Of a stretch of 32,181 nt of DNA, positions 29,679 to 31,861 are shown in pieces. How positions within the stretch are numbered: position 1 is the stretch's first letter; each line of letters opens with the position of its first letter. A program made the position numbers and the translations under genes. The stretch comes from Deltaproteobacteria bacterium CG11_big_fil_rev_8_21_14_0_20_42_23 (GTDB lineage Bacteria; UBA10199; 2-02-FULL-44-16): contig PCXC01000018.1 in NCBI GenBank assembly GCA_002796345.1, positions 1-32,181 on the forward strand, written 5' to 3'. The notes beneath the pieces were generated by a model that did not search any database, was not told the DNA's origin, and saw only the letters and a program-made list of their open reading frames with translations.

Positions 29679-30110
29679 TTAAAACGGCACATCATCAAAA
29701 GCTGATTCATTTGCGCCGGTGTCGAAGCCTGGAATGGTTTCGCCAGCAGCTTCATAAGAAGAGCCCGTGCTTGCTTCACCTTTCGAACCTAAAAACTGAA
29801 CGCGCTGAGCTACCACTTCTGTAGTGTAGCGTTTGTTTCCATCTTTATCATCCCATGCACGCGTTTGAAGGCGGCCTTCAATGTAGACTTGGCGGCCTTT
29901 TGAAAGATATTGCGCGCAATTTTCTGCTTGAGGACCCCAAACGACAACACGGTGCCATTCAGTTTTTTCTTGGCGTTGCCCAGACTTGTCGTTCCATTTT
30001 TCGCTGGTTGCAATATTCAGCGTGGTGACAGCTTGGCCAGTTCCAGTTACTTTTTTTTCAGGATCTTGCCCAAGGTTTCCGATGATGATTACTTTGTTTA
30101 CACTTGCCAT
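29679..30110 (-). CDS. ssb: Single-stranded DNA-binding protein
   Basis: 143 residues. The OB fold covers about 1-108: [18 protein letters not shown], then [44 protein letters not shown] and [16 protein letters not shown] short flexible linker leads to the acidic tip ending DDVPF, the canonical docking site for repair and replication partners. GAGG lies seven bases upstream of the ATG. It starts 16 bases after the lipoprotein gene. Confidence 0.97.
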
Positions 30111-30126
30111 ATTTTTACCTCACAGG

Positions 30127-30828
30127 TTAACGTTTCGATGCAATTTTTTCTTCAAGCTTTTTAGTTTGATCAATCCATCTCATGTAATCGGTGTTGCGTT
30201 TCCACAACGGAATTTTTTCTTTCGCTTTTTGAATGTGAGCGTGAGCTTGTTCAGTTTTTTCAAGTTTGAGAAGTGTGTCCGCGGAGGAAAGTAAATTCTC
30301 TGGATAATCAGGAGCAAGATTAATGGCTTCTTGCAAGTATTTTTCTGCTTTTTCTAAATCGCGCGTAATTCCATCTGGATAGAGTGTTGTTTGCGGAAGC
30401 TCGGTGTACACTTGGCCCAAAATTCTGTAGGCGCCAGCGTTTTCATAAGCGGGGTTGAGGTGAATCACCTGGTTTAAATCGGAAAGCATGCTTTTAATGC
30501 CTTCTTGATATCCAATGACTCGCGCTTGATAGAAGAGGCCAGTGTTGACGGCATGATAATAGTAGCAGCCTGCTTCTTCCGGATAGCGTTCGATGCAACG
30601 AGCCGCAAGCGCCATGCCTTTTTCGGCTTCATTTTTGGCCTGAAGTCTGGTGCCAGTATGAAAGGCTTGCTCGGAGGCGTTTCCCGCTTTCAATGCAGCC
30701 GCAATCAGTTCCTGAGAGCTTGAGGTCTCTGGAGTGATGGTGTAATTTTTTGCGGTTTTATGTTTTCCCGCACACTGGCAAAGAAGCATCAATACAGCCA
30801 GGCAGGGGAGGAGGTGTTTTTTTGTCAT
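30127..30828 (-). CDS. Putative lipoprotein with TPR-like repeats
   Basis: 233 residues from the ATG at 30828 (an in-frame GTG lies three codons earlier; neither has a clear ribosome site). The N-terminus MTKKHLLPCLAVLMLLCQCAG looks like a lipoprotein signal, with C17 or C19 as the lipidated residue, though the residue before Cys is not the usual Gly or Ala. The rest is helical with TPR-like segments, such as AYRILGQVYTELP, DLEKAEKYLQEAINLAPDYP and LLKLEKTEQAHAHIQKAKEKI. TPR lipoproteins act as envelope scaffolds; the partner is unknown. It heads the transcript that includes ssb. Confidence 0.75.
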   Translation of the reverse strand: MTKKHLLPCLAVLMLLCQCAGKHKTAKNYTITPETSSSQELIAAALKAGNASEQAFHTGTRLQAKNEAEKGMALAARCIERYPEEAGCYYYHAVNTGLFYQARVIGYQEGIKSMLSDLNQVIHLNPAYENAGAYRILGQVYTELPQTTLYPDGITRDLEKAEKYLQEAINLAPDYPENLLSSADTLLKLEKTEQAHAHIQKAKEKIPLWKRNTDYMRWIDQTKKLEEKIASKR

Positions 30829-30886
30829 GTGCGGCACTTAACAGGCTTTGCTTGGAGCAGCAATACCTTTTTCTTTTTTCTGTTTC

Positions 30887-30915
30887 TTGACGCGAAGAAG
30901 GGTGCATGCTAGGAA
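30887..30915 (+). promoter_or_regulatory. Candidate promoter of the tRNA-Cys locus
   Basis: TTGACG (30887-30892) is followed after 17 bases by TAGGAA (30910-30915), then 27 bases to the first tRNA base. The -35 box is good and the -10 box weak. It would now drive the tRNA remnant, the endonuclease gene and both downstream tRNAs. Confidence 0.45.
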
Positions 30916-30942: not shown

Positions 30943-30964
30943 GGCGGCGTAGCCAAGTGGTAAG
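30943..30964 (+). pseudogene. tRNA-Cys 5' fragment, broken in the D-arm
   Basis: The 22 bases read as a tRNA 5' end: acceptor strand GGCGGCG, then TA, then a D-arm GCCAAGTGGTAAG. They share CCAAGTGGT(T)AAG with the intact tRNA-Cys at 31661. The sequence then stops resembling a tRNA. No matching 3' acceptor strand CGCCGC appears downstream within the locus. The acceptor differs from that of the intact copy (GGCGCGA), so this is not simply a copy of it. Confidence 0.75.
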
Positions 30965-30981
30965 TATAAGTAACTGAAAGT

Positions 30982-31740
30982 ATGGAAATTGCCGAAAAAA
31001 GAGGTGGGCATAACCGTAAAAAATTCCATGAAGAATTTTTTAAGCAATGGTCTCCTTCAATGGCTTACGTATTAGGATATGCTTTTGCAGATGGTACTTT
31101 AATTGAGTCTCAAGTTGCTAGATGTTGTTACTTGAGGTTTGTAAGCAATGATAAAAGTTTATTACAACAGGTCAAGTTGGTGCTAGGGAGCGAAGTTAAA
31201 ATACAAAAAAGAGGTGTACGAAAACTTATAAGCCATAATAAAATCTACTGGAGCAAGCCAAGTTATGTGCTCAGTATTGGAAATAAGGTGCTTTTTCAGC
31301 AATTAGTTCAGCTCGGTTTGAAGCCTGACAAGTCTTTGGACATGCAATTTCCATATGTACCTCAAGAATATCTTTCATTTTTTATTCGCGGATATTTTGA
31401 TGGTGATGGTTGTGTGAGTATAACAAATCAAGGAAAAAGACTTCAGGTGGCTTTTACATCAGGAAGTAAAGAGTTTTTAACTACGTTATCTCAGCATTTG
31501 GCAAATATTTCTTTTGTAAAAAAACAAAACGTAGTTAAAAGTACAAGAAGTTATCAATTGAGATTTTCAACTCATGAAGCTATGCAAGTACTAGCTTTTA
31601 TGTATGAAAAGTTGGAGTTAGCTCTGTACTTAAAGAGAAAGTATAAAATATACCAACAATGGCGCGATACCCAAGTGGTTAAGGGGCCGGTTTGCAAAAC
31701 CGTTATTCGCGGGTTCGACTCCCGCTCGCGCCTCAAGTAA
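30982..31740 (+). CDS. LAGLIDADG homing endonuclease, reading frame extending through tRNA-Cys
   Basis: 252 codons. Two LAGLIDADG motifs are visible, AYVLGYAFADG (28-38) and FIRGYFDGDG (134-143), each ending in the catalytic acidic residue, so it is a monomeric two-motif enzyme that would cut a long asymmetric DNA site. Typical domain features follow each motif, and the second domain ends at about residue 226 (LYLKRKYKIYQQ). From residue 227 the frame is the tRNA-Cys gene itself, read WRDTQVVKGPVCKTVIRGF and on to a TAA at 31738. The last 26 residues are therefore tRNA-derived. The ATG lies 17 bases after the tRNA fragment and has no good ribosome site; a stop at 30967 closes the frame upstream. 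No group I intron core is seen. Confidence 0.92.
   Translation: MEIAEKRGGHNRKKFHEEFFKQWSPSMAYVLGYAFADGTLIESQVARCCYLRFVSNDKSLLQQVKLVLGSEVKIQKRGVRKLISHNKIYWSKPSYVLSIGNKVLFQQLVQLGLKPDKSLDMQFPYVPQEYLSFFIRGYFDGDGCVSITNQGKRLQVAFTSGSKEFLTTLSQHLANISFVKKQNVVKSTRSYQLRFSTHEAMQVLAFMYEKLELALYLKRKYKIYQQWRDTQVVKGPVCKTVIRGFDSRSRLK
31661..31733 (+). tRNA. tRNA-Cys (GCA)
   Basis: 73 bases. The acceptor GGCGCGA pairs fully with TCGCGCC (31726-31732), and the T-arm GCGGG/CCCGC encloses TTCGACT. The anticodon loop TTGCAAA has anticodon GCA, flanked by a stem with one mismatch at its base. The discriminator is T (U), as required for cysteinyl-tRNA synthetase. CCA is not encoded. The whole gene lies inside the 3' end of the endonuclease reading frame. 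Confidence 0.95.
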
Positions 31741-31755
31741 GAGAATTTCTTTTTT

Positions 31756-31843
31756 GCCCAGGTGGCGGAATCTTGGTAGACGCCTTGGACTTAAAATCCA
31801 ATGGAGGGCGACCTCCGTACCGGTTCGAGTCCGGTCCTGGGCA
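31756..31843 (+). tRNA. tRNA-Leu (TAA)
   Basis: 88 bases with a long variable arm (GGAGGGCGACCTCC region), as in class II tRNAs. The acceptor GCCCAGG pairs with CCTGGGC and the discriminator is A. The anticodon stem TTGGA/TCCAA encloses CTTAAAA, anticodon TAA. CCA is not encoded. It begins 22 bases after tRNA-Cys and is followed by a terminator. Confidence 0.96.
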
Positions 31844-31861
31844 CAAAGTTCGCCAAACAAA

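What the first reader, a model, noticed from the sequence alone, without database searches (positions are those of the whole stretch)
30943..31740. Homing endonuclease gene that broke a tRNA-Cys and appears to carry its own replacement tRNA-Cys
A tRNA-Cys 5' end stops in the D-arm, a LAGLIDADG gene follows, and then a complete tRNA-Cys. The acceptor strand of the fragment (GGCGGCG) cannot pair with the downstream 3' end (TCGCGCC) without two mismatches, while the downstream copy pairs perfectly. So the downstream tRNA was probably delivered whole with the endonuclease gene. A free-standing endonuclease gene that targets an essential tRNA and rescues its host with a substitute would be a distinct way to survive insertion, different from an intron or intein. 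The sequence facts are direct; the rescue model is inference.
Basis: partly seen in the sequence, partly recalled or inferred. Interest (0 to 1): 0.85.

Follow-up and report, generated by a model that had tools for sequence, protein, structure and literature searches.

The report
Endonuclease gene that replaced its tRNA
A small selfish DNA-cutting gene appears to have landed inside this bacterium's only cysteine tRNA gene, left the broken front end behind, and sits directly against a different, intact cysteine tRNA that must now do the job; this looks like a natural cut-and-rescue element, and many of its relatives sit against tRNA genes in other little-known bacteria.

Summary
Bases 30943-30964 are a 22-nt tRNA-Cys 5' end; a LAGLIDADG gene (30982-31740) follows, then the genome's only intact tRNA-Cys (31661-31734). 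A same-family genome (G001) lacks the endonuclease here but shares the neighbours; its intact tRNA-Cys starts with the same 22 nt, and all seven order relatives read have the GGCGGCG/CGCCGCC acceptor. So the native tRNA was broken in its D-arm. The intact tRNA differs: its first 23 nt and T-arm match tRNA-Cys of other families better, its middle is native-like, so "delivered whole" is likely but unproven. No intron is present. Of the 80 best cellular relatives, 70 lie beside a tRNA gene (41 with Cys downstream); of 80 distant viral relatives, 1 does. Endonuclease clades track the tRNA they sit beside. One relative in the window's own clade (L044) shows a probable mirror image: intact tRNA-Cys, endonuclease, displaced tRNA-Cys 3' end. 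Best reading: a free-standing homing endonuclease that targets tRNA-Cys and survives by bringing a divergent replacement. It works like fungal mitochondrial mobile ORFs and tRNA-restoring islands, but without integrase or intron and on a bacterial tRNA. Cleavage and homing are untested.

The parts
30887..30915 (+). Candidate native tRNA-Cys promoter, TTGACG-17 nt-TAGGAA, now upstream of the fragment
   Evidence: A TTGAC box lies 40-60 nt upstream of tRNA-Cys in six of seven order relatives and at -56 here; the -10 is read by eye, weak
30943..30964 (+). Displaced 5' end of the native tRNA-Cys (acceptor 5' strand and most of the D-arm), broken after nucleotide 22
   Evidence: 22/22 identical to intact tRNA-Cys of G001 at the syntenic place; scan score 22 against null maximum 10
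30982..31740 (+). Free-standing LAGLIDADG homing endonuclease gene; its last ~26 codons are the tRNA-Cys gene read in frame
   Evidence: Pfam; invariant A36-D37-G38 and G137-Y-F-D140-G-D142-G in 43 relatives; predicted fold pLDDT 88.6 matches I-Tsp061I, I-SceI, I-AniI, I-DmoI
31661..31734 (+). Replacement tRNA-Cys (GCA), the only tRNA-Cys of the genome
   Evidence: ARAGORN and Rfam; 88% identical to G013 tRNA-Cys; acceptor GGCGCGA unlike the GGCGGCG of its order
31756..31844 (+). tRNA-Leu(UAA), native right-hand flank
   Evidence: Closest to tRNA-Leu of its own order; the Cys-Leu order is conserved in G001 and G004
30127..30837 (-). TPR-like protein gene, native left-hand flank
   Evidence: Homologues at the same place beside tRNA-Cys in G001, G004, G006
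29679..30110 (-). Probable single-stranded DNA-binding protein gene (ssb), native left-hand flank
   Evidence: Homologues (63-72% identical) at the same place in G001, G004, G006; the name is from the sequence by eye

Best explanation
A free-standing LAGLIDADG homing endonuclease gene has inserted into the D-arm of the host's single tRNA-Cys gene. It came as a cassette whose 3' end is a divergent tRNA-Cys: at least its first ~23 nt, probably all or most of it. The native 5' piece and its promoter were left upstream; the piece no longer makes a tRNA. The new tRNA-Cys, read from the native promoter or from one inside the cassette, supplies the essential function. Because the replacement differs from the native sequence around the break, it should also resist the endonuclease, so one change would give both rescue and self-immunity. 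Shown: empty site in sister genomes, break point, non-native replacement, intact endonuclease fold with conserved catalytic residues, family-wide linkage to tRNA genes. Inferred: cleavage of native tRNA-Cys, homing, transcription, tRNA function, and that tRNA and endonuclease arrived together.
For: Sister genomes with shared neighbours carry an intact tRNA-Cys whose first 22 nt equal the fragment. The downstream tRNA is of another acceptor type than all seven order relatives read, and is nearest to tRNA-Cys of other families in its first 23 nt and T-arm. It is the only tRNA-Cys. No intron family matches. Endonuclease relatives: 70/80 beside a tRNA, 41 directly before tRNA-Cys, against 1/80 distant viral relatives; the target tRNA is clustered on the tree, 17 changes against 44 in shuffles. 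The endonuclease stop lies inside the first 21 nt of the tRNA in 25 of 42 Cys-linked loci, as expected if the tRNA front belongs to the cassette. L044, in the same subclade, has a probable mirror-image scar.
Against: Positions 24-48 of the replacement look native, so a single foreign donor is not proven. Except for L044 no other relative shows a scar. In G021 and G017 the endonuclease stands before tRNA-Asp with no tRNA fragment, where G010 of the same genus as G021 has none: insertion into a spacer also occurs in this family. No donor was found (closest protein 46-48% identical). One metagenome contig, no reads.
Confidence: 0.7

Rival explanations
1. The cassette carried only the 5' end of a tRNA (about 23 nt fused to the endonuclease's 3' end) and reused the resident 3' part; the T-arm and acceptor 3' strand changed later by compensatory mutation or were co-converted. 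This is a variant of the best explanation that differs in how much tRNA was delivered.
For: Positions 24-48 are native-like, 22/25 with G001; over the whole 3' part native and foreign are level, 43/51 against 44/51; in many relatives only the tRNA front is overlapped by the endonuclease frame.
Against: New front plus native back pairs only 4/7 in the acceptor, a poor tRNA at the start; T-arm changes are not needed for pairing yet are foreign-like.
Confidence: 0.25
2. A foreign tRNA-Cys arrived first by ordinary horizontal transfer beside the native one; the native gene became redundant, and the endonuclease later inserted between the two and destroyed the native copy, with no rescue by the element.
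For: Same final anatomy; tRNA genes do transfer horizontally; the endonuclease family also inserts into spacers beside tRNA-Asp.
Against: Needs two events and exact loss of the native 3' part; the ORF ends inside the tRNA with a 2-nt gap from its conserved end, as in L021 (8 nt); linkage of this clade to tRNA-Cys is family-wide.
Confidence: 0.15
3. An integrase-driven island in tRNA-Cys that decayed until only an endonuclease gene remained.
For: tRNA plus displaced fragment is the island signature (PMC4383910).
Against: No integrase in the 0.7-kb insert; fragment and restored tRNA are not identical repeats (18/23) as site-specific integration would give; the endonuclease family itself is linked to tRNA genes in many lineages.
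Confidence: 0.03
4. The fragment is the 5' exon of a tRNA split by an intron or trans-spliced with a 3' half.
For: Group I introns do occur in tRNA genes next to related endonucleases.
Against: No intron match at E<=1; joined halves mispair in the acceptor; a complete, better tRNA-Cys is already present.
Confidence: 0.02

Closest known systems
Fungal mitochondrial mobile ORFs (Allomyces atp6; Glomus atp6, atp9, cox2, nad3; PMC3630166)
   Same: Endonuclease ORF (often LAGLIDADG) enters an essential gene together with a foreign copy of one end of that gene; the native end is displaced and silent
   Different: There the target is a mitochondrial protein gene and its C-terminus; here a bacterial tRNA and its 5' end (3' end in L044)
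Integrase-driven genomic islands in tRNA genes (Islander, PMC4383910)
   Same: tRNA gene is split, a working tRNA is regenerated and a displaced fragment marks the other end
   Different: No integrase, 0.7 kb instead of an island, fragment and restored part differ in sequence, and here it is the 5' piece that is displaced
Phage T4/T6 SegB free-standing endonuclease (PMC13096335)
   Same: Free-standing homing endonuclease that sits beside and cuts inside tRNA genes and drives their spread
   Different: Phage-borne, not embedded in the tRNA it cuts, and no replacement of a broken tRNA is described in the passages read; that it is GIY-YIG is from general knowledge
Endonucleases of bacterial group I introns, and collaborative homing (PMC3984707)
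   Same: Homing endonucleases that occupy tRNA genes; relatives here stand beside intron-bearing tRNA-Asp and tRNA-Leu
   Different: The window has no intron; survival is by replacement, not splicing
LAGLIDADG genes in rRNA insertions of CPR bacteria (PMC11270868)
   Same: Same broad protein class and largely the same host group
   Different: Those lie in rRNA insertions thought to be spliced; this family stands beside tRNA genes. The word tRNA does not occur in that paper's text
Engineered home-and-rescue drives (HomeR, PMC7968924)
   Same: Cuts an essential gene, inserts there and carries a re-coded rescue that can use the native promoter
   Different: Synthetic, Cas9-based, in insects

Membership tests
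Free-standing LAGLIDADG homing endonuclease | Two LAGLIDADG motifs with catalytic acids in the LAGLIDADG fold | tested here: met
Free-standing LAGLIDADG homing endonuclease | Not inside an intron or intein | tested here: met
   No intron match; the ORF is not part of a larger host protein
Free-standing LAGLIDADG homing endonuclease | Alleles without the gene exist at the same place | tested here: met
   G001 and G004 empty sites
Free-standing LAGLIDADG homing endonuclease | Cuts the empty allele and not its own | not testable with these tools
   Needs biochemistry
Mobile ORF with foreign gene end (fungal mitochondrial type) | Displaced native gene piece next to the endonuclease | tested here: met
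   Fragment 30943-30964
Mobile ORF with foreign gene end (fungal mitochondrial type) | Replacement piece of foreign origin carried with the endonuclease | tested here: inconclusive
   Positions 1-23 foreign-type, 24-48 native-like, T-arm foreign-like; no donor found
Mobile ORF with foreign gene end (fungal mitochondrial type) | Host gene is a mitochondrial protein gene | tested here: not met
   The host gene is a bacterial tRNA gene; so it works like one but is not filed as a member
Integrase-driven genomic island in a tRNA gene | Restored tRNA plus displaced fragment | tested here: met
Integrase-driven genomic island in a tRNA gene | Integrase gene in the element | tested here: not met
   Only the LAGLIDADG ORF fits between 30965 and 31660
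Integrase-driven genomic island in a tRNA gene | Fragment identical to the corresponding part of the restored tRNA | tested here: not met
   18 of 23 aligned positions agree
Group I intron in a tRNA gene | Intron ribozyme between two exons of one tRNA | tested here: not met
   No RF00028 match; joined halves do not pair

The most novel reading that the evidence does not exclude
This is a recent, still readable case of a widespread class of tRNA-targeting homing endonucleases (Cys, Asp, Leu and Val lineages across Patescibacteria, Omnitrophota and this phylum) that act as natural cleave-and-rescue drives: each cuts an essential tRNA gene and carries a divergent, uncuttable tRNA of the same kind that replaces it, thereby swapping tRNA genes between distant hosts.
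Probability: 0.4. Interest if true: 0.82.

Novelty: new variant of a known kind. Interest (0 to 1): 0.64.

Why it matters
If true, bacteria have a natural counterpart of home-and-rescue gene drives, aimed at single-copy essential tRNA genes and needing neither intron, intein nor integrase. It would explain why many Patescibacteria carry LAGLIDADG genes running into the front of tRNA-Cys or tRNA-Asp and why some tRNA genes look horizontally replaced. It also gives a defined pair of DNA targets (native versus replacement D-arm), so the idea can be tested directly in a test tube. I found no description of this tRNA-adjacent family in the open-access papers searched.

Tried and rejected
Viral contigs: no relative with the single protein; with the alignment only distant LAGLIDADG genes, 1/80 beside a tRNA. 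Phage and plasmid records: only distant LAGLIDADG proteins, best rows at most 36% identical. Scar scans on the cellular relatives: only the window and L044 stood out; other hits were near chance level, an undetected truncated tRNA (L055), or intron-split tRNA-Asp (L304, L306, L307). Whether the tRNA 3' part is native or foreign could not be settled. A tRNA-Asp 5' piece in G031 (L191) looked like a second 5' scar, but it is a contig that ends 25 nt into a tRNA, so it was dropped. Intron and splicing models rejected. Ten paper searches found no report of tRNA-adjacent LAGLIDADG genes with replaced tRNAs; subscription papers and preprints are not covered.

Full report
Observation. The window contains, in order, GGCGGCGTAGCCAAGTGGTAAG (30943-30964), an ORF from ATG at 30982 to a stop at 31740, a complete tRNA-Cys at 31661-31734 and a tRNA-Leu(UAA) at 31756-31844. 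The ORF is a LAGLIDADG protein. Its frame runs on through the whole tRNA-Cys, so about 26 C-terminal residues are tRNA-encoded; the structure model gives these residues low confidence while the body is confident (mean pLDDT 88.6). The genome is 2.03 Mb, 99.99% complete, with 35 tRNA genes and a single tRNA-Cys.

Chance. In an ungapped scan of the region before the endonuclease against tRNA-Cys 5' ends, the fragment scores 22; shuffled regions give 7-10.

Sister genomes. G001, of the same family, has the same neighbours (a probable ssb and a TPR-like gene, then tRNA-Cys and tRNA-Leu) and no endonuclease. Its tRNA-Cys begins with exactly the 22 nt of the fragment and continues GCGACGG... to CGCCGCC. 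G004 shows the same empty arrangement; G006 too has an intact tRNA-Cys there, with another endonuclease further on. All seven order relatives whose tRNA-Cys was read have GGCGGCG/CGCCGCC. A TTGAC box 40-60 nt upstream of tRNA-Cys is present in six of the seven and, in the window, before the fragment. So the native tRNA-Cys gene was broken after its 22nd nucleotide, in the D-arm, and its promoter region was left in place.

The intact tRNA. It has acceptor GGCGCGA/TCGCGCC. By region, positions 1-23 agree at up to 22/23 with GGCGCG-type tRNA-Cys of other families in the class and at 15-19/23 with its own order. Positions 24-48 are native-like (22/25 with G001, 23/25 with G008, against 17-21 for the others). 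The T-arm (15-16/17 with G013, G026, G023 and G016, against 9-13 in the order) and the acceptor 3' strand are foreign-like. The tRNA-Leu is closest to that of its own order. Hence the 5' part is non-native and the right-hand junction lies within or just after tRNA-Cys. Whether the whole tRNA came with the endonuclease, or only its front with later co-conversion or compensation, is open. A simple hybrid of the new front and the native back pairs only 4/7 in the acceptor, which favours delivery of most of the tRNA.

No intron. No intron family matches the region even at E<=1. Joining the fragment to the downstream 3' half leaves two mismatches and one G-U in the acceptor.

The family. A scan of one genome per species found 172 relatives; the 80 kept are mainly Patescibacteria, with some Omnitrophota and others. 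Of these 80, 60 have a same-strand tRNA starting within 130 nt downstream (41 Cys, 17 Asp, 2 Val) and 10 more have one only upstream; the background in their flanks is about 0.1 tRNA starts per kb. Among 80 distant viral LAGLIDADG relatives, 1 is tRNA-adjacent. Some of the remainder abut group I introns, and in L304, L306, L307 and L309, from a second search, the tRNA-Asp after the endonuclease is itself split by an intron. In 25 of 42 Cys-linked loci the endonuclease stop codon lies within the first 21 nt of the tRNA, in 15 of them at the same D-loop codon. In a tree of 88 proteins the target tRNA is strongly clustered (17 changes against 44 in shuffles), and all Cys-linked proteins, the window included, fall in one group (100/99). 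This is what a family that homes to tRNA genes and travels with their 5' ends would show; it is correlation, not proof of cutting.

Mirror case. The window belongs to a subclade of nine (100/99) whose other members mostly have tRNA-Cys just upstream of the endonuclease. One of them, L044, has directly after the endonuclease stop the sequence GCGAATCTCGCCGTGGCCTC, a tRNA-Cys 3' end whose acceptor strand CGTGGCC differs from that of the intact upstream tRNA (TCCGGCC). None of 60 dinucleotide shuffles reached its score (14, against at most 12). This is a probable independent case of breakage plus replacement in the opposite orientation. No other 5' scar was found; old scars are expected to decay.

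Counter-case. In G021 and G017 a related endonuclease stands between a BtuF-like gene and tRNA-Asp without any tRNA fragment, while G010, of the same genus as G021, has the two genes adjacent. So members of this family can also sit in the spacer before a tRNA; breakage inside the tRNA is shown only for the window and, probably, L044.

Mechanism. Most likely the endonuclease cuts native tRNA-Cys near the D-arm, and repair from the endonuclease-bearing allele inserts the gene together with a divergent tRNA-Cys. That tRNA restores the function and, being different around the break, should not be recut. Cutting, homing, expression and tRNA function are inferred. The exact 22/22 identity of a now useless fragment to another genus suggests a recent event. 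The protein model matches solved LAGLIDADG endonucleases (I-Tsp061I, I-SceI, I-AniI, I-DmoI) and the catalytic motif residues are invariant among relatives.

Known kinds. The logic equals that of fungal mitochondrial mobile ORFs, which carry a foreign gene end and displace the native one (PMC3630166), and the anatomy equals tRNA-restoring integrase islands (PMC4383910). But there is no integrase, the repeat is not identical, and the target is a bacterial tRNA. Phage SegB shows that free-standing endonucleases can cut inside tRNA genes (PMC13096335). Engineered home-and-rescue drives (PMC7968924) have the same design. I rate it a new variant of a known kind.

Limits. One metagenome-type contig with no reads to check; no same-genus genome; the donor is unknown (closest endonuclease 46-48% identical); genome names are hidden; the literature search was limited to open-access papers.

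Noticed in passing
L010 1339-2374 (genome G006, same order as the window): A tRNA-Leu(UAA) 5' half directly after a related LAGLIDADG gene is followed by a group I intron (RF00028, 74.5 bits); ARAGORN missed this tRNA.
   Followed up: partly
L304, L306, L307, L309 (also intron matches in L096, L099): Endonuclease relatives stand directly before tRNA-Asp genes that are themselves split by an intron of about 200 nt after the first anticodon base (group I by Rfam in L306); possible collaborative homing between free-standing endonuclease and tRNA intron.
   Followed up: partly
L044 3707-3727: Probable tRNA-Cys 3' scar right after the endonuclease, with a different acceptor strand from the intact tRNA-Cys upstream.
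   Followed up: partly
25 of 42 Cys-linked loci, for example L032, L043, L059: The endonuclease frame ends inside the tRNA front, often at the D-loop stop codon, so RNase P processing of the tRNA would cut off the end of the endonuclease message; this may couple the two.
   Followed up: partly
L021 2691-3747: A tRNA-Gly followed about 190 nt later by a 27-nt copy of its own 3' end, then a frameshifted endonuclease relative 8 nt before tRNA-Cys and then tRNA-Val.
   Followed up: no
L201 1571-4569 (genome G031): A duplicated C-terminal piece of a BtuF-like gene stands just before the tRNA-Asp-linked endonuclease, after a pentapeptide-repeat ORF; in G010 the same gene abuts tRNA-Asp with no endonuclease.
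   Followed up: partly
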